Virus record (IMG/VR): IMGVR_UViG_3300042465_005689
Span: 1 to 30,972 of that record
Strand: one strand, 5' to 3'
Origin: a virus
DNA length: 30,972 nucleotides
Shown here: positions 22,801 through 29,598 of the stretch, in pieces
Layout: the number at the start of each line of letters is the position of its first letter
Position numbering within the stretch: position 1 is the first letter of the stretch
Notes under the pieces: generated by a model
What the model saw: the letters and a program-made list of their open reading frames with translations, nothing else
Told to the model about the DNA's origin: nothing
Databases searched by the model: none
Made by a program: the position numbers and the translations under genes

Positions 22801-22856
22801 CATGGTTGCGAAACCTAGACTTACACCCCCGTGTAGGTGTAGTTTTCGCAACCATG
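22801..22856 (+). other. attP: Candidate attP: 56-bp near-perfect palindrome at integrase start
   Basis: Arms of 26 bp (22801-22826 and 22831-22856) match at 23 of 26 positions around a central CCCC. The outer 13 bases, CATGGTTGCGAAA, are perfect. The right arm ends in the integrase ATG (22854-22856). Large serine integrases use attP sites of about 40-56 bp made of two imperfect inverted half-sites, often beside int. Alternatives are an autoregulatory operator or a terminator after holin. Confidence 0.6.
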
Positions 22857-24230
22857 AAAGTTGTTTACGCGAGAGTCTCATCCGACCCCGACGGCACATC
22901 GCTATCCCCCGAAGCCCAGATAGCCGAATGCGTTGAGTTCGCAAAGAAACACGGGTGGGACCACATCCAAGAACATGTCGACCGGGACATCAGCGCGTGG
23001 TCCCGCAAAGTCGCACGCCCCGCATGGAACCACATCCTCGACGGGATACGCAACGGGACAATAACCGGAGTCATCGTCCACCATCTCGACCGGCTCATCC
23101 GGCAGGTACGCGACCTCGAAACCCTCATCGACGCGTTAGAAGACCGACCAGGGACCACCCGCGCGTTTCCCATCTACTCAGTCCACGGCGACATCGACCT
23201 ATCCCGCCCCGACGGCCGGGCCATGGCACGCATCCTTGTCACGATCGCCCAGAAAGAATCCGACGACAAATCCCGGCGACTCAAACTTGTTCTCGGCGCA
23301 CAGGCAGCACAGGGTTTATCGCACGGCGGCCGCCAACCATACGGGTGGAACCCCGACAGGGTCACACTTCACCCCGTTCACTCGCAGAATGTTCGGCAGC
23401 TTGTCGACTGGGCGTTCCAAGGGGTCAGCCTGTCGGAGATGGCACGCAGGTTTAACACCGAGAAGATCCCCGGCCCGCAGTCCCCAAGGTGGGATGGAAG
23501 CCCTATCGGCCGGATGCTAACCAACCCGAGGCTCGCAGGGTTACGCCGGCATAACGGCAAAATTGTTGCGACCGGCAACTGGGAAACGATTATCACCCTC
23601 GAGGAACACACCAAACTTGTTGGCCTGTTCAACCGACCCCAGAACACCCCGCACGGCAACCAACTCAGATGGTGGGCCACAGGGGTAACTGTCTGCGGGC
23701 GTTGCGGGGGTCGCATGTCATCAATCCCCCACCAGAACGGGCGACGCTACCAGTGCCAGAAACGGTATCAGGGGTGCGGCAACGGGATCCTCGCCGAACC
23801 CGTCGACCAGATCATCGAAACGATCATCACGCACACCCTTCGGGAAGGGTGGGAAACCCCAGCCGCACCCCCTGTCGATGTGACCCTGCTTACTGCCAGC
23901 CTGGAAACTGCACGGGCCAGCATGGACCGCCTCACCACCGACTACTACGTCAACAACCTCATACCCGAACACGCTTTCAAAGCGGCGTTCGAACCGTTAC
24001 AAACGCGTGTTGAGCAACTCGAGGCGGAACTCGCCGACACCCAAACCCAAACACCCGTCCTTGATTTTGATATTCCCGGCACGTTCGCGTCTTGCACACC
24101 CGAACAAAAACGGGGTATCTGCCGGACCCTGATCCCCTGTGTGAAGATCGGGCCGGCAGGACCGGGGTTCAGGGGGTTCGATTCGACGCGAATCGAAGTT
24201 TGGTTAACCGACCCTCCACCACCGCTTTAA
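22854..24230 (+). CDS. int: Large serine recombinase (phage integrase)
   Basis: Encodes 458 residues from ATG 22854. The N-terminal resolvase domain begins MKVVYARVSS with Tyr5, Arg7 and catalytic Ser9. It continues through HHLDRLIRQVRDLETLID and ESDDKSRRLKLV. A recombinase domain follows (GWNPDRV onward). Then comes a zinc ribbon with Cys281/Cys284 (CGRCGG) and a later QKRYQGCGNG, and a C-terminal coiled-coil part (ETARASMDRLTTDYYVNNLI). This is the normal large-serine-integrase layout and length; the enzyme inserts phage DNA between attP and attB. No Shine-Dalgarno precedes the ATG. The coding strand switches to C/A-rich codons compared with the G/T-rich holin upstream. Confidence 0.93.
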   Translation: MKVVYARVSSDPDGTSLSPEAQIAECVEFAKKHGWDHIQEHVDRDISAWSRKVARPAWNHILDGIRNGTITGVIVHHLDRLIRQVRDLETLIDALEDRPGTTRAFPIYSVHGDIDLSRPDGRAMARILVTIAQKESDDKSRRLKLVLGAQAAQGLSHGGRQPYGWNPDRVTLHPVHSQNVRQLVDWAFQGVSLSEMARRFNTEKIPGPQSPRWDGSPIGRMLTNPRLAGLRRHNGKIVATGNWETIITLEEHTKLVGLFNRPQNTPHGNQLRWWATGVTVCGRCGGRMSSIPHQNGRRYQCQKRYQGCGNGILAEPVDQIIETIITHTLREGWETPAAPPVDVTLLTASLETARASMDRLTTDYYVNNLIPEHAFKAAFEPLQTRVEQLEAELADTQTQTPVLDFDIPGTFASCTPEQKRGICRTLIPCVKIGPAGPGFRGFDSTRIEVWLTDPPPPL

Positions 24231-24273: not shown

Positions 24274-24300
24274 ACCGATGACACGAAACCCTGTGTCGGT
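24274..24300. terminator. Possible bidirectional hairpin between convergent genes
   Basis: The 69-base gap between int (stop at 24230) and the convergent minus-strand operon contains ACCGATGACAC (24274-24284) and GTGTCGGT (24293-24300). They can pair with a two-base bulge around an 8-nt loop. There is no strong U-tract on either side. Its place at a convergent junction makes a terminator plausible. Confidence 0.35.
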
Positions 24301-25136
24301 CATACCCCGCACACCCCTGCGCACTCGTCACCCCAGAGTGTCCCTTGGCCTGCGTCCTCGGCGTTATCAAAGTTGATTTCGCCGAGAGGTTTCCCTGAAC
24401 TATGAAGGTAAACGGGTTTGGTGATTCTTCCGAATTGGCCGTTGGATCTCAGATCGAGGTCAAGGTCGATCGCTTTCTGAAACGCTTCCGGTTCCTCGTT
24501 ACGCAAGTAACGCCATTCTTCGTTCGAGTGGAACGGGCAATGCCAGCACGCCGATCGCACAGGATCCGGGAAACGGTCATCGGCTTTCATCGCTGCGATG
24601 CAGTCGTAGCGGGTGAGCCGCAGATCAACCAGGGGGTACACGTTTTTGACCCACGGGTACGGGTGGTCTTTCATCCGTTGAACCTCATCCCATGAGATAC
24701 CCATTGTCTGCTCAACAAGGGTGTCCGTGATGTGCATGTGCCGCTTCTTGTGCAGCCCGGTGAGATCCCGTAGGGAACGCAATATCGGTTCAATCTTGTA
24801 ATCAGCGGTGCATGTCCTGCGGATAATCCCAGTTGAGCCATCCTCGTTCAGTGTGAACAAAGGCGGATTCGAGGATCGGGTTTTCTCACCCGATACCACC
24901 GCCCGGAGATCATCAGAGATTGATGTTCCCCGGCCAACCTGATGAAACGCCACGCCTTCATCAGTGAACCGTTTCTCCCACCATCGCATGTTCTCGTAAA
25001 CCGATTCGGGTTCGTCCCCGGTATCAGCAAAGATCACATGATGAAACGGTGGAAGCTCCCCGATGATTGACATTCTGGCAACAGCCGACGATTGAACGCC
25101 GGCCCCGAAACTTAGAACTCTCATCGGTTCGGTCAT
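24300..25136 (-). CDS. PAPS-reductase-like PP-loop ATPase
   Basis: Encodes 278 residues from ATG 25136. It overlaps the upstream reading frame as ATGA and has GGAAGAAGAGA before the start. The N-terminal LSFGAGVQSSAVARMS is the PP-loop that adenylates a substrate. RRTCTADYKIEPI and ACWHCPFHSNEEW supply a Cys and a CxxC that could bind a metal, Fe-S cluster or sulfur. These features fit the phage PAPS-reductase-like family, relatives of the DndC and sulfur-transfer enzymes. True sulfate reduction is unlikely in isolation. Placement right after a cytosine methyltransferase suggests a base or backbone DNA modification. It is the last gene of the early operon. Confidence 0.8.
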   Translation of the reverse strand: MTEPMRVLSFGAGVQSSAVARMSIIGELPPFHHVIFADTGDEPESVYENMRWWEKRFTDEGVAFHQVGRGTSISDDLRAVVSGEKTRSSNPPLFTLNEDGSTGIIRRTCTADYKIEPILRSLRDLTGLHKKRHMHITDTLVEQTMGISWDEVQRMKDHPYPWVKNVYPLVDLRLTRYDCIAAMKADDRFPDPVRSACWHCPFHSNEEWRYLRNEEPEAFQKAIDLDLDLRSNGQFGRITKPVYLHSSGKPLGEINFDNAEDAGQGTLWGDECAGVCGV

Positions 25137-26011
25137 CGGATCTCTTCTTCCGCTATCGCGGACATGATGCAGCATTCGGGGGGTCGATTCTTTTGGGTAG
25201 TCACTGCGCCCTCATTCACTGAGCCTGTCGAGTAGTTCAACGAATGCTGCTGCTGCCACTGCTGGTACGAGTCCGTTCCCACCGAGGTGCAAGGATTCAA
25301 CCAATTCCGGGGGAGTCCCATTAGTTGTTCTACGAATCGCGGGTTTAGGTCCACCTTGGGCGATGTACTCGGGCCAGTCCCCTTCTCTATTTGGCGGCCA
25401 CTGGCCGTATGTATCGCCGCAGCTACCGGTAGCATTTGCGAGTTTCGGTGTAGTTGTGACGGCGAGGCCGCTAGGTCTTTCGGGTCGTGGGCGGTCGGTG
25501 TCGGCCAATAGCCAGAACCGTTCCCGTTTGTGCGGCGCGCCAACCTCGGCCGCTGAGTGCAAACCCCATTCCGCATCGAACCCGAGGTCGGCAAGGTCAG
25601 CGAGGACAAAAGGCAAACCTCCCCGAACAAGTTCGGGGACGTTTTCCAAGAACACAAATCTCGGTCCCACTTCACGAACGATTCGTTTGATGGCAGGCCA
25701 GAGCCAGCGTTCGTCGTCAATGCCACGCTGTGATCCTGCGAGACTGAAAGGCTGACAGGGGAAACCGGCAGTGATGCAATCCACTCGGCCGCGCCACGCT
25801 CCGCTATCAAAGGTTGTGAGATCGTCCCAGATAGGAGCCGGATCCAAGTGCGCCTCTTCCATCCTGGCCACAAGAGCGGCCGCCGCGTAGCTGTCCCGCT
25901 CAACGTGAGCCACGGTTCGTGCATCAATTCCGGCGAGTCGGAGTCCGAGTTCGAAGCCCCCGTACCCTGAGCAGAGATGCAAACATCTAAGTTCGGTATG
26001 TGTAGCCACAT
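25133..26011 (-). CDS. Overlapping-frame protein nested with the C5-methyltransferase
   Basis: A 292-residue frame on the same strand as the methyltransferase but in another phase. It starts at ATG 26011, overlapping the lipoprotein stop (TGATG), and ends at TGA 25133, overlapping the next start (ATGA). Both junctions are typical of real genes in this operon. It contains SGSMRNGVCTQRPRLA (about 145-160), GSGYWPTPTAHD (about 165-177), a SPSQLHRN stretch (about 180-190) and LNPRFVEQLMGLPRNW (about 220-236). These resemble, from memory, phage proteins and target-recognition segments associated with Dcm-type enzymes. A conserved phase-shifted shadow of the methyltransferase is the main alternative. 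Function is unknown. Confidence 0.55.
   Translation of the reverse strand: MWLHIPNLDVCISAQGTGASNSDSDSPELMHEPWLTLSGTATRRPLLWPGWKRRTWIRLLSGTISQPLIAERGAAEWIASLPVSPVSLSVSQDHSVALTTNAGSGLPSNESFVKWDRDLCSWKTSPNLFGEVCLLSSLTLPTSGSMRNGVCTQRPRLARRTNGNGSGYWPTPTAHDPKDLAASPSQLHRNSQMLPVAAAIHTASGRQIEKGTGPSTSPKVDLNPRFVEQLMGLPRNWLNPCTSVGTDSYQQWQQQHSLNYSTGSVNEGAVTTQKNRPPECCIMSAIAEEEIR
25212..26009 (-). CDS. DNA cytosine-C5 methyltransferase
   Basis: Encodes 265 residues from GTG 26009, two bases inside the ATG of the overlapping frame, so both would share the GGAAG ribosome site. Motif I is LHLCSGYGGFE (10-20) for SAM. Motif IV is AGFPCQPFS with catalytic Cys85. Motif VI is FLENVP with Glu122. Motif VIII is RERFWLLA (162-169), and motif X is GGNGLVPAV (243-251). 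The region between VIII and X, which chooses the target, is only about 75 residues, so the enzyme is short for a Dcm. It likely protects phage DNA or regulates it by 5-methylcytosine. It ends 76 bases before the next gene start. Confidence 0.9.
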   Translation of the reverse strand: MATHTELRCLHLCSGYGGFELGLRLAGIDARTVAHVERDSYAAAALVARMEEAHLDPAPIWDDLTTFDSGAWRGRVDCITAGFPCQPFSLAGSQRGIDDERWLWPAIKRIVREVGPRFVFLENVPELVRGGLPFVLADLADLGFDAEWGLHSAAEVGAPHKRERFWLLADTDRPRPERPSGLAVTTTPKLANATGSCGDTYGQWPPNREGDWPEYIAQGGPKPAIRRTTNGTPPELVESLHLGGNGLVPAVAAAAFVELLDRLSE

Positions 26012-26313
26012 CACAAACACTTCCGTGTTAGGAACTGTGTGGTCCCTGCGAGGGTGAGCGACCCGACGGTATCGCCGGTGATAACAACCCCAGCCGATTC
26101 TTCTGCCCCGTTGATTATCACGGCCGCACAAATCTCTGTCTGATCAGACAAAGACATCTGGTTCCAGACTGTCCCGAGGAGTACCTGTTCGTCGTCAACG
26201 GCCGGGTAACCACCCGTGTATTCGCCTGACCCTGCCGGTGCGGTGTACCCGGACGAACACCCCGACACGATCCCCAACATGACAACGGCCCCAGCAACGA
26301 TCAGCCGGTTCAC
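26011..26313 (-). CDS. Small lipoprotein in the early operon
   Basis: Encodes 100 residues from GTG 26313, overlapping the upstream stop (GTGA). Residues 1-19 are a classic signal peptide (MNRLIVAGAVVMLGIVSGC). The lipobox VSGC has the lipidated Cys at residue 19, followed by SSGYTAPAGSGEYTGG as a flexible linker. The mature domain is about 80 residues with Cys62 and Cys99 that could form a disulfide. A secreted lipoprotein expressed with recombination and modification genes is unusual. Known phage lipoproteins of this size can block receptors and exclude superinfecting phages, but that role is inference. Confidence 0.75.
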   Translation of the reverse strand: MNRLIVAGAVVMLGIVSGCSSGYTAPAGSGEYTGGYPAVDDEQVLLGTVWNQMSLSDQTEICAAVIINGAEESAGVVITGDTVGSLTLAGTTQFLTRKCL

Positions 26314-26618
26314 AACTCCACCTCAGTGAGTTGCGTTTGGGCGATACTGACCGCGTCGGTGATCGTGCTGATCCCCTCAGCAGCCAAGCCAAGCTGATCC
26401 AACTCGTCGGCCGTAACCCACATTTTCAGAAGGACTGTTTCCTCCTGCGGCACAGGGGCCACAAGGCCGAACTCTTCGAGAATCCCCACAGGGAGACTGA
26501 ACAGTGTGTGAGGTGCGCGCACCCCGACACCCTGACGCATCGCCGAACAGATCACCCGTTCACCGGGAAGACCCGGATCCCATTCAACTTTGACTTCCAT
26601 TGTCTGCCATTCACTCAT
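26310..26618 (-). CDS. Hypothetical early protein, 102 aa
   Basis: Starts at ATG 26618, overlapping the 3' end of the ERCC4-like gene by 8 bases; GTG 26630 is an alternative in-frame start. The sequence opens MSEWQTMEVKVEWDPGLPGE and has a central beta-rich part. A helical C-terminal segment follows (VTADELDQLGLAAEGISTIT), and the protein is acidic overall. No signal peptide, membrane segment or known motif is seen. Its tight overlap on both sides places it in the early operon. Confidence 0.6.
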   Translation of the reverse strand: MSEWQTMEVKVEWDPGLPGERVICSAMRQGVGVRAPHTLFSLPVGILEEFGLVAPVPQEETVLLKMWVTADELDQLGLAAEGISTITDAVSIAQTQLTEVEL

Positions 26619-27294
26619 CTTGAACACCACTTTCGTTTGATAGGAAACTGTTTTTGAATACTGCTGTTATTGCCGCAACACGTTTCGGGCCAAGCCCTGA
26701 CACGGACAGAAGATCCGACTGGGGGTCCAACATCATTGGCATCCCAACCTGATCCAAAATCTTCGCGGCGAGTTCGGGGCCAACACCCGGCAGACCTTGC
26801 AACAGGTGAACCTGGTAGTCCCTCGAGTTCACTGTCCCCCACTGCGAGCGGACCGCCGGCCGACCCGAGAGGGAACGGTGAACATCCTTTTTGCACCACT
26901 CCTCAAACGTCTCGAGAAGGCGGACCGTGTCATCAAGGCTGTCCGAAAAGTCGACCCACAAGCCGTTCGCCCGTGCAGTCCACAAAATCTTTCTCAACGA
27001 CTGCCGGGTGACCCCCCCGCCGTACCTGCCGACCAGATCACCCGACATAGTCCACTTAGCTGAACCCTCAACAACGACCATCCGGTAACACAAACCGGGG
27101 TCGGACATCTTCGCGATCTGCTCGCCGAGCCTTCCGTCCCTGATACTTGAGATCAGATCCTTAAACTCTTTGCGTTGCACACCCGCCCACCTGCCGTTCG
27201 CTGCGAACAACAGGTCGCACCCGAAAGTCTCGGGGAGCATCGACACTGTCCCCAGGTTTCGTAGCGCAACGGGTTCTGTCGGCGAGATGATCAC
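26611..27294 (-). CDS. ERCC4/XPF-like nuclease with helix-hairpin-helix
   Basis: Encodes 227 residues from GTG 27294 (GTGA overlap). Residues about 20-60 resemble an ERCC4 nuclease core: LPETFGCDLLFAANG, then GVQRKEFKDL (QRKEFKD at 40-46, the counterpart of the ERKxxxD catalytic motif), then SSIRDGRLGEQ. Two C-terminal helix-hairpin-helix-like motifs are present, LLQGLPGVGPELAAKILDQV and LLSVSGLGPKRVAAI. XPF/Mus81-type enzymes cut branched or flap DNA, so this is probably a structure-specific endonuclease for phage recombination or repair. The family call is firm for the HhH part and good for the nuclease. Confidence 0.8.
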   Translation of the reverse strand: MIISPTEPVALRNLGTVSMLPETFGCDLLFAANGRWAGVQRKEFKDLISSIRDGRLGEQIAKMSDPGLCYRMVVVEGSAKWTMSGDLVGRYGGGVTRQSLRKILWTARANGLWVDFSDSLDDTVRLLETFEEWCKKDVHRSLSGRPAVRSQWGTVNSRDYQVHLLQGLPGVGPELAAKILDQVGMPMMLDPQSDLLSVSGLGPKRVAAITAVFKNSFLSNESGVQDE

Positions 27295-27600: not shown

Positions 27601-28365
27601 TCAGCCCGCTTTCTTTGGTCGCCAGCCGGCGATCTTCATCAGATAGTCGCGACCGAAATCGGCGACGGTTACGTTTTCGATCTCTTCGCGTTCACGATCC
27701 TTGATCGTTGTCATACGAAACTCACCGGTCCGCGCTTTCGACATGAACAGCACCGTGTGCGGGGTGTACGCCAACGTCTTCTGACCCTTAGGTTTAAACC
27801 CGATCGTCGAATACAACGACCGGACTTTGCGGTCATCCCTGTCCCCGACAGCGTCAGCTTCAGCAGTCAACAACAAGTTCCCTTTGCAGGTGAACAATGC
27901 GTCGTACATTTTGGCGAACTCGCCGTTCACTGCCTGCCAGTTGATATCGGCATCAGTTTTGTCGTTGTCTTTCGACCCGTTCGTAGCGAAGAAATCGAAG
28001 AAATCGTCGCCGTGTTTCATCGTGATGTACAAGGTTTGGATTGCTTGCCAGCAGGGTGTCGCCGAGTCGAGGACAAGCCAGTCGCCTTCAACTGTTCCCG
28101 CTGCTGCGTCCCTGACGGCTTTCAACTGGCCTTTCCAATCCGCCGGTCCAACTACTTCAACCTGGACCCGGTCTGCGAACTCTGCGTGGTTCGGCGAGGC
28201 AAGCGAACGGAACCAACTAGCGGAGTAGTCGGTGTCAACGACTCGCATAGTTTCCGTTGCGCCCATTGTGTGAGCGATCGTTAACGCCGCCGTCGACTTA
28301 CCCGACCCTGCGTCACCGTAGAGAAGGATCCTCTCCGGTGCTTTAGATGGTGGTTGCAAAATCAT
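27601..28365 (-). CDS. Sak4/RecA-like phage ATPase
   Basis: Encodes 254 residues from ATG 28365, overlapping the upstream HTH gene as ATGA; the frame is open further upstream but that part is not a likely protein. Walker A is GDAGSGKST (17-25) and Walker B is DWLVLDS with Asp100. The central part contains VNGEFAKMYDALF, and the C-terminal part has FKPKGQKTLAYTPHTVLFMS and TTIKDREREEIENV. This is the layout of phage Sak4-type, RecA-related single-strand annealing/strand-exchange ATPases, which usually travel with an SSB and a nuclease. It is the likely motor of the early recombination module. Confidence 0.8.
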   Translation of the reverse strand: MILQPPSKAPERILLYGDAGSGKSTAALTIAHTMGATETMRVVDTDYSASWFRSLASPNHAEFADRVQVEVVGPADWKGQLKAVRDAAAGTVEGDWLVLDSATPCWQAIQTLYITMKHGDDFFDFFATNGSKDNDKTDADINWQAVNGEFAKMYDALFTCKGNLLLTAEADAVGDRDDRKVRSLYSTIGFKPKGQKTLAYTPHTVLFMSKARTGEFRMTTIKDREREEIENVTVADFGRDYLMKIAGWRPKKAG

Positions 28366-28568
28366 GGTTGTTCTTCCTGTTCTTCTGGTTGTATGCGAAT
28401 GAACTCTGCGAGCCTTACGATCAGCCCTTTTTCGAATAGCGGCATCCCCGACTTCGTGATCTCCACGGGAACGATGATCTCTTCTCGGATCCACCGGTTC
28501 ACTGTGAACCGGTCAACGCCGAGGATGTTTGAAACTTCTTTTCGTGTGACCAGCTCGGGGCTAGACAC
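28362..28568 (-). CDS. Small MerR/Xis-like HTH protein
   Basis: From GTG 28568 this encodes 68 residues, overlapping the end of the nuclease gene; an upstream ATG at 28652 would add 28 residues inside that gene. The sequence begins PELVTRKEVSNILGVDRFTV and continues NRWIREEIIVP, a winged-helix/helix-turn-helix of the MerR/excisionase (helix-turn-helix domain 17) type. It ends in an acidic IQPEEQEEQP tail. It could be an excisionase partner of the serine integrase (recombination directionality factor) or a regulator. The start is uncertain. Confidence 0.65.
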   Translation of the reverse strand: MSSPELVTRKEVSNILGVDRFTVNRWIREEIIVPVEITKSGMPLFEKGLIVRLAEFIRIQPEEQEEQP

Positions 28569-29598
28569 CTGTACCTGTCCCAGCCCAGTCGTCACCCTCA
28601 CCCGTTCCGGCGACGATTTTGCGGCGACCAAGTTTCGGGAACTCCCGGACATGCGCCTTCACTGTTCGGGTTGATAGTTCGATCTGCGAACGAACCCACA
28701 CGAGTGTTTGGCCGTCGTACTGGAGACGTTTCCCGTGTTTCGCAACTAGCTGCTGCGTTAGTTCTTTCGCCTCAGACTTGGCTGTTTTGGCTTGCTGTTC
28801 GAACAGTTTTGCGTCGTCGAGGAGGCCGGCGGCTCGGATGAACACAGCCTGGTCGGCGGGGTCTTCCATCCCCGTGTACTCGACAGGGTCGTGAACCTGC
28901 GGGTAACCACACCCCCAGAGGGAACTCGGCGGGCAGTCGGGCCATTCGCCCTGTGTTTCACCCAGACCGACCGCCCGTTCCACCCGGCGGATCTTGTCAA
29001 ACACCGATTCGATATCAACATCCTCGAGGGTCAGCCAGTGGTAATCGATCTGGTTGTCGGGGCCTACGGTCCCATCCTCAGATTTGAGCGCCACAGGTAG
29101 GACAGCGGTTTTCGCTCCGGTTGCTTCCATGTACACCGCCATCTGAGACAGGTAGTACGGGAACGCCTTAATCCCCTTTGACTGCAACTGTTTCCAGAAC
29201 GAAGGGCCGAACGCTTTAGCGTCAACCACGACAGCGAACCCCGTCGCAGGATCTACCGCCAGCCCATCAAGATGGCCGCGGATAACAACCTGGGTTTCCT
29301 GATAGTGGTTACCCCACCGTACGGTCCGCTCGAGTTCAACCTCGATCTGCTCGTCGTCGTTGTCGGGGATATTGATAGCGAACCCTGGGTGGTCCTTAGC
29401 GAACCGTTCCATGATCGTGTGTTCCGCTGCGTGTCCCTCATCAAACTTCACCTGAAGAGAAGCAGGCGGGGGCACTTTGTCGAGTTCTTTGCGTGCCGCT
29501 ATAAGCGCACGCTCACAACCACCCACAGCCGACGCACGGTAAACCCAGATGTCATGGTCGGGTTCGATCCGGTACACGCTCGCACGATCGTCACCCAT
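28561..29598 (-). CDS. Cas4/RecB-like PD-(D/E)XK exonuclease
   Basis: Encodes 345 residues from ATG 29598 with GGGG upstream. The N terminus has RASAVGGCERALIAARKEL (Cys28), resembling the first Cys region of Cas4/AddB-type nucleases. GHAAEHTIMERF follows. IRGHLDGL supplies Asp111, and VVVDAKAFG supplies Asp126 and Lys128 of the PD-(D/E)XK core. WPDCPPSSLWGCGYP holds two more cysteines that could complete an Fe-S cluster. The C terminus is helical and coiled-coil-like. This fits a phage Cas4/RecB-type exonuclease that makes single-strand ends for the Sak4-like partner. Confidence 0.8.
   Translation of the reverse strand: MGDDRASVYRIEPDHDIWVYRASAVGGCERALIAARKELDKVPPPASLQVKFDEGHAAEHTIMERFAKDHPGFAINIPDNDDEQIEVELERTVRWGNHYQETQVVIRGHLDGLAVDPATGFAVVVDAKAFGPSFWKQLQSKGIKAFPYYLSQMAVYMEATGAKTAVLPVALKSEDGTVGPDNQIDYHWLTLEDVDIESVFDKIRRVERAVGLGETQGEWPDCPPSSLWGCGYPQVHDPVEYTGMEDPADQAVFIRAAGLLDDAKLFEQQAKTAKSEAKELTQQLVAKHGKRLQYDGQTLVWVRSQIELSTRTVKAHVREFPKLGRRKIVAGTGEGDDWAGTGTGV

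What the first reader, a model, noticed from the sequence alone, without database searches (positions are those of the whole stretch)
25133..26011. Two overlapping reading frames at the C5-methyltransferase locus, both gene-like
Seen: the methyltransferase frame (GTG 26009 to 25212) has motifs I, IV, VI, VIII and X intact. A second same-strand frame (ATG 26011 to TGA 25133) is open for 292 codons. It begins in a TGATG junction with the upstream gene and ends in an ATGA junction with the downstream gene, whereas the methyltransferase leaves a 76-base gap. Known family patterns, recalled without a search: GSG-WPTPTA-D, a SPSQ..RN stretch and LNP.FVE.LMG.P..W occur in phage proteins and target-recognition parts of Dcm-type enzymes. 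Inference: DNA here may encode two proteins, perhaps a methyltransferase and a companion specificity or anti-restriction factor, from overlapping frames sharing one ribosome site.
Basis: partly seen in the sequence, partly recalled or inferred. Interest (0 to 1): 0.85.

Follow-up and report, generated by a model that had tools for sequence, protein, structure and literature searches.

The report
Split methyltransferase in overlapping frames
The same stretch of phage DNA is read in two overlapping frames to make two proteins, a DNA-methylating enzyme lacking its recognition part and, most likely, the partner that supplies that part; the pairing is conserved across many phages, usually with only one of the two proteins annotated.

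Summary
Frame A (26009-25212, -) is a C5-cytosine methyltransferase with motifs I-VIII and X. Frame B (26011-25133, -) is open, matches phage family phrog_1008 (E 3.7e-20), and is a real gene at family level. Across 76 non-redundant relatives found with A alone, B holds 1 stop where synonymous shuffling of A predicts 443. Purifying selection acts on both frames (B 0.34, A 0.21, control frame 0.87). Classical HhaI-type enzymes show no such depletion (107 stops, 105 expected).

The constrained frame switches within the gene: A over motifs I-VIII, B over the target-recognition region. B's repeated W-P-T-P modules and its LNP.WVE.LMG.P.GW segment (motif IX-like) also occur in single-chain methyltransferases, between motifs VIII and X. 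A has no motif IX.

Best reading: one two-chain C5-methyltransferase, A catalytic and B recognition. M.EcoHK31I is a known two-polypeptide precedent with motif IX on the small chain, so this is a variant of a known kind. The breadth, near-coincident starts and exchangeable second-frame modules were not described in the papers I could search.

Methylation by A+B is untested. Evidence specific to this window is thin (one close relative), and both structure predictions were too weak to help.

The parts
25212..26009 (-). Frame A: C5-cytosine methyltransferase catalytic chain (motifs I-VIII and X, no motif IX), GTG start
   Evidence: PF00145 E 8.3e-33 over residues 8-169, phrog_363 E 1.3e-57; profile matches M.HhaI over motifs I-VIII only
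25133..26011 (-). Frame B: overlapping gene, +1 frame, proposed recognition/motif-IX chain, ATG start
   Evidence: phrog_1008 E 3.7e-20; open and conserved in relatives
25944..25982 (-). A motif I (SAM binding, LHLCSGYGGFELG)
   Evidence: sequence
25743..25766 (-). A motif IV (GFPCQPFS, catalytic Cys)
   Evidence: sequence
25503..25541 (-). A motif VIII (GAPHKRERFWLLA)
   Evidence: sequence
25242..25283 (-). A motif X (GGNGLVPAVAAAAF)
   Evidence: sequence
25559..25666 (-). B conserved stretch DRDLCSWKTSP...TLPTSGSMRNGVC, overlapping A motifs VI-VIII
   Evidence: conserved in alignment A1; several four-fold A sites here are nearly fixed in relatives
25481..25507 (-). Start of the B recognition module (WPTPTAHDP)
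   Evidence: module families; sequence
25301..25348 (-). B motif-IX-like segment LNPRFVEQLMGLPRNW
   Evidence: same segment lies between the recognition region and motif X in single-chain enzymes
26007..26013 (-). Start cluster: upstream stop TGA overlapping B ATG 26011-26009, then A GTG 26009-26007
   Evidence: sequence
25133..25136 (-). ATGA junction: B stop overlaps start of the downstream PAPS-reductase-like gene
   Evidence: sequence

Best explanation
The locus encodes the two chains of one C5-cytosine DNA methyltransferase in overlapping frames. A carries the SAM-binding and catalytic core (motifs I-VIII) and motif X. B, started almost at the same place, carries the target-recognition modules and the motif-IX-like segment. 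A and B would associate into the active enzyme that methylates phage DNA, presumably against host restriction. Shown: both frames exist, B is under protein-level purifying selection at family level, and the constrained frame changes from A to B at the recognition region. Inferred: that B is translated, binds A, and sets the target sequence. The biological purpose is inference.
For: B openness: 79 of 80 loci retrieved with an A profile have an uninterrupted B; 1 stop against 443 expected in 76 non-redundant loci; negative control of six classical enzymes 107 against 105.1. Four-fold A sites: homozygosity 0.66 against 0.31 expected, about 0.97 over the B motif-IX region. dSN/dSS for B 0.34, dNS/dSS for A 0.21, control frame 0.87. 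First ~60 codons: dSN 0.25 against dSS 1.0, so B's N-terminus is constrained too. Frame switch: divergence at B codon positions 1/2/3 is 0.155/0.194/0.404 in the recognition region but 0.121/0.375/0.202 over motifs V-VIII, with pairs chosen by nucleotide match, blind to frame. B start: NTGAATGAG in most relatives, which puts a TGA in B's frame just before B's ATG. Recognition function: the same WPTP modules and LNPDWVECLMGFPIGWT-like segment lie in frame between motifs VIII and X in single-chain enzymes L263 and L268; in L248, L261, L264, L266 A holds only I-VIII while B continues into motif X. B C-terminus aligns with those tails (hhalign 98.4%). Module types recur at different positions in different loci. 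Precedent: M.EcoHK31I, motif IX on a separate small chain (PMC3404938).
Against: No expression, complex or activity data. The motif-IX identity against M.HhaI-type enzymes is not statistically significant alone (best place is exactly motif IX, P 0.06 against full length). AlphaFold models are weak (B mean pLDDT 56, no PDB match at Z 2 or more; L263 recognition region unmodelled). The window has one close relative (L001): dSN/dSS 0.48 on six SS sites, and B identity exceeds the null no more than the control frame does. The role of B's N-terminal ~160 residues is unexplained.
Confidence: 0.75

Rival explanations
1. B is a real overlapping gene but not an enzyme subunit: a regulator, anti-restriction protein or other factor that happens to be overprinted on the methyltransferase.
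For: B is constrained along its whole length, including ~160 N-terminal residues with no known fold or family.
Against: B's modules and motif-IX-like segment occur within single-chain methyltransferases; A lacks motif IX and its own recognition region evolves almost freely; no B was found without an A-type gene.
Confidence: 0.14
2. A programmed ribosomal frameshift from A into B near motif VIII makes a fusion with recognition region and motif IX.
For: The constrained frame switches at that point; L010 has a natural in-frame A-to-B fusion.
Against: B has a conserved start codon beside A's start and a constrained N-terminus, both pointless for a frameshift product; a fusion would lose motif X, which stays in frame A. 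A conserved slippery site was not searched for.
Confidence: 0.06
3. B is an open frame kept open by the composition and codon usage of A and is not translated.
For: For this window alone the lack of stops is only P 0.016, and GC is 58%.
Against: 1 stop against 443 expected in relatives, including genes with GC below 50%; control frame and control enzymes show no such depletion; selection tests.
Confidence: 0.02
4. The family pair is real, but in this particular phage B has decayed or lost its role.
For: The window and L001 are outliers (26-30% B identity to the rest); window-specific selection signal is weak.
Against: B is full length, keeps the start cluster, WPTPTA module and motif-IX-like segment, and ends in a coupling-type ATGA junction.
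Confidence: 0.03

Closest known systems
M.EcoHK31I (YGGCCR), two-polypeptide C5-methyltransferase
   Same: Large chain with motifs I-VIII and X, motif IX on a separate small chain; two proteins needed for methylation (PMC3404938, citing Lee, Kam and Shaw 1995). From memory, not read here: its small-chain gene lies inside the large-chain gene in another frame.
   Different: There the predicted recognition domain is assigned to the large chain; here the modules under selection are in the second frame. B here is nearly as long as A and starts within a few bases of it. Sequence relation to M.EcoHK31I not tested.
M.AquI, split C5-methyltransferase
   Same: Catalytic motifs I-VIII on one chain, motif IX on the other (PMC3404938). 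L248-type relatives (A with I-VIII, B with recognition region, IX and X) resemble it most.
   Different: Motif X is on the small chain in M.AquI; in the window it is on A.
phrog_1008, 'DNA methyltransferase'
   Same: All 10 members of B alignment A1 match it (best 5.1e-32).
   Different: The window's A protein does not match it, so its name appears to describe the neighbour frame: B has none of the catalytic motifs.
M.HhaI and other single-chain C5-methyltransferases
   Same: A matches motifs I-VIII; same motif order overall.
   Different: Motif IX and recognition region are not in A; classical genes keep normal numbers of stops in the +1 frame.

Membership tests
C5-cytosine DNA methyltransferase (PF00145), frame A | Motifs I, IV, VI, VIII in order | tested here: met
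   PF00145 114.6 bits, cut-off 22; aligned to M.HhaI
C5-cytosine DNA methyltransferase (PF00145), frame A | Motif X | tested here: met
   GNGLVPAVAAAAF, aligned with the conserved GNGQVPAVAATAW of relatives
C5-cytosine DNA methyltransferase (PF00145), frame A | Motif IX and recognition domain on the same chain | tested here: not met
   No motif IX candidate in A (inspection); A recognition region near neutral in relatives
M.EcoHK31I-type two-polypeptide enzyme | Large chain with I-VIII and X, lacking IX | tested here: met
M.EcoHK31I-type two-polypeptide enzyme | Second polypeptide carrying motif IX | tested here: inconclusive
   LNP.WVE.LMG.P.GW fits by position and by L263-type chains, but the profile match to classical motif IX is not significant alone
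M.EcoHK31I-type two-polypeptide enzyme | Both chains required for methylation | not testable with these tools
   needs expression and assay
M.EcoHK31I-type two-polypeptide enzyme | Sequence homology to M.EcoHK31I chains | not tested
phrog_1008 | Profile match of frame B | tested here: met
   E 3.7e-20
Long overlapping gene (overprinted pair) | Both frames open and under purifying selection in relatives | tested here: met
Long overlapping gene (overprinted pair) | Both products detected | not testable with these tools
   no ribosome profiling or proteomics available

The most novel reading that the evidence does not exclude
Phages hold an exchangeable set of DNA-recognition modules in a second reading frame across a methyltransferase gene. 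Recombination of WPTP modules would change the target of the enzyme through frame B, while frame A only has to stay open as filler until motif X. A large class of 'DNA cytosine methyltransferase' genes with odd recognition regions would really be such overlapping pairs.
Probability: 0.4. Interest if true: 0.82.

Novelty: new variant of a known kind. Interest (0 to 1): 0.68.

Why it matters
If right, many phage and prophage methyltransferases annotated as one protein are two, and the part that chooses the DNA target is in the frame usually left out. Expressing the annotated chain alone would then give no or wrong activity, and methylome assignments to these genes would need redoing. It would also be a rare, broadly conserved, nearly full-length same-strand overlap in double-stranded DNA phages, in which selection visibly moves from one frame to the other along one gene. 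It gives a direct, cheap test in a methylation-free laboratory strain.

Tried and rejected
Structure: AlphaFold of B family member L038 (81-row alignment) gave mean pLDDT 56, pTM 0.25; of single-chain L263 gave a good catalytic core but an unmodelled recognition region; VIA-align found no PDB match for B. Pfam, NCBIfam and PDB sequence searches give no family for B. Pairwise identity of frame B against shuffled codons does not discriminate, because the control frame rises too; I rely on the four-class substitution counts instead. Module pairs picked by B protein similarity favour B by construction, so the test was repeated with frame-blind nucleotide matches. Literature: no paper on overlapping phage C5-methyltransferases in the searches made; the Paenibacillus larvae phage paper lists the two genes, and the passages found do not comment on their overlap; PMC306636 and PMC2836561 are not held. 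B-only loci were looked for and none found. Considered and rejected: chance open frame; frameshift fusion as sole product. The genome search class search for phrog_1008 was not possible from a virus record.

Full report
What was checked. The window is an IMG/VR virus record of 30,972 bases. On the minus strand, frame A (GTG 26009 to 25212, 265 aa) and frame B (ATG 26011 to TGA 25133, 292 aa) overlap almost completely, B being +1 relative to A. A is a C5-cytosine methyltransferase (PF00145 E 8.3e-33; phrog_363 E 1.3e-57). B has no Pfam match but hits phrog_1008 at 3.7e-20, a family A does not hit. B begins in a TGATG junction with the gene upstream and ends in an ATGA junction with the gene downstream.

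Is B more than chance? In the window alone, 0 stops against 3.0 expected from synonymous shuffles of A (P 0.016): suggestive only. In relatives the case is strong. Scans with B and with A profiles of this family gave about 170 viral loci, some repeated, and 52 bacterial or archaeal ones; a scan with a divergent Paenibacillus-phage B gave 39 more. Loci found with B are biased towards open B, so the A-profile set is the fair one: 79 of 80 have one uninterrupted B, and in 76 non-redundant ones there is 1 stop in the B span where 443 are expected. That A profile was itself built from loci found through B, so the statement applies to this clade of A. Six classical HhaI-type phage enzymes show 107 stops against 105.1 expected. 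The third frame is not depleted (1967 observed, 1650 expected).

Selection. In 136 non-redundant A genes, four-fold degenerate A sites, which are second positions of B codons, have homozygosity 0.66 against 0.31 expected, near 0.97 over B's C-terminal motif. With substitutions sorted by effect in each frame, dSN/dSS for B is 0.34 and dNS/dSS for A is 0.21; the same test on the third frame gives 0.87 (independent-pair resampling for B 0.32 +/- 0.01). SS sites are few and near saturation, so the ratios are approximate. B's first 60 codons are constrained (dSN 0.25, dSS 1.0).

The frame switch. With pairs chosen by frame-blind nucleotide match, divergence at B codon positions 1, 2, 3 is 0.155, 0.194, 0.404 in the recognition region, the pattern of a gene read in B. 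Over motifs V-VIII it is 0.121, 0.375, 0.202, the pattern of a gene read in A. Within modules matched by B similarity the contrast is larger (A-changing B-silent 0.61, A-silent B-changing 0.13), but that set is selected on B.

What B carries. Its C-terminal half is one to six modules of about 30-50 residues, each opening with W-P-T-P or similar, then LNP.WVE.LMG.P.GW. Module types recur in different loci and at different ordinal positions. In L263 and L268 such modules and that segment sit in frame inside one chain, after motif VIII and before motif X, where the recognition domain and motif IX belong. In L248, L261, L264 and L266 A stops after motif VIII and B runs on into motif X. A in the window has no motif IX. 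B's C-terminus matches the L263-type tails (98.4%). Against classical enzymes its best place is exactly motif IX, but not significantly (P 0.06).

Start sites. Most relatives have NTGAATGAG, A's start four bases before B's ATG, with TGA directly before B's ATG in B's frame. In the window B's ATG lies two bases before A's GTG. Both could be served by the GGAAG about ten bases upstream (sequence; inference).

Mechanism. I infer that A (catalysis, I-VIII and X) and B (recognition, IX) form one enzyme. A must keep its filler region open to reach motif X, while the filler's content is set by B. M.EcoHK31I is the nearest precedent: two polypeptides, motif IX on the small one (PMC3404938). That its small gene is nested in another frame is my recollection; the original paper was not held.

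Limits. No expression data. Weak structure models. One close relative for the window; the pair window-L001 alone cannot separate B from the control frame. Metagenomic contigs may hold sequencing errors: L045/L170 has a stop in B; L028, L103, L104 and L280 have one in A; L008 and L010 look like single indels that swap frames. I did not search for slippery sites.

Distribution. Relatives occur in phages of Acinetobacter, Pseudomonas, Salmonella, Stenotrophomonas, Microcystis, Synechococcus, Paenibacillus and Mycobacterium. In 369 sampled genomes of one bacterial class, 14 had a match.

Noticed in passing
L152 1440-2510 and 1642-2346 (Paenibacillus phage Tadhana gp54, gp55): Both overlapping frames are already annotated in a public record, each called DNA methyltransferase; other P. 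larvae phage records list the same pair.
   Followed up: partly
L013 2441-2941 (Stenotrophomonas phage SOVA965); L148 1501-2229 (Pseudomonas phage phPA-G): The annotated gene is frame B while the catalytic frame A is not annotated; in SOVA965 the B frame is named DNA-cytosine methyltransferase.
   Followed up: yes
L303 352-771 (Streptococcus phage P0095): A classical methyltransferase gene carries an annotated nested +1-frame CDS of 139 aa, also called DNA methyltransferase, in a 41% GC gene; overall stop count in that frame is 11 against 13.9 expected.
   Followed up: partly
L290 102-2129: A methyltransferase frame of 676 codons has what looks like an intein inserted at the catalytic PCQ of motif IV (SCPC-FPEGT...VHN-CQPFS).
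   Followed up: no
L001 601-1623: The window's closest relative has a further WPTPTAHD module in B after the motif-IX-like segment.
   Followed up: no
L034 3001-4431; L062 969-2381: B runs into a second copy of an A-type C-terminal segment, as if the 3' part of the gene had been duplicated out of frame.
   Followed up: no
window 22806-24230: Large serine recombinase (phrog_95 E 9.2e-85) on the plus strand, convergent with the methyltransferase operon, suggesting a temperate phage.
   Followed up: no
window 24300-25136, 26611-27294, 27601-28494, 28561-29598: Same operon: PAPS-reductase-like protein, ERCC4 plus helix-hairpin-helix nuclease, AAA/Sak4-like ATPase and Cas4-like exonuclease.
   Followed up: no
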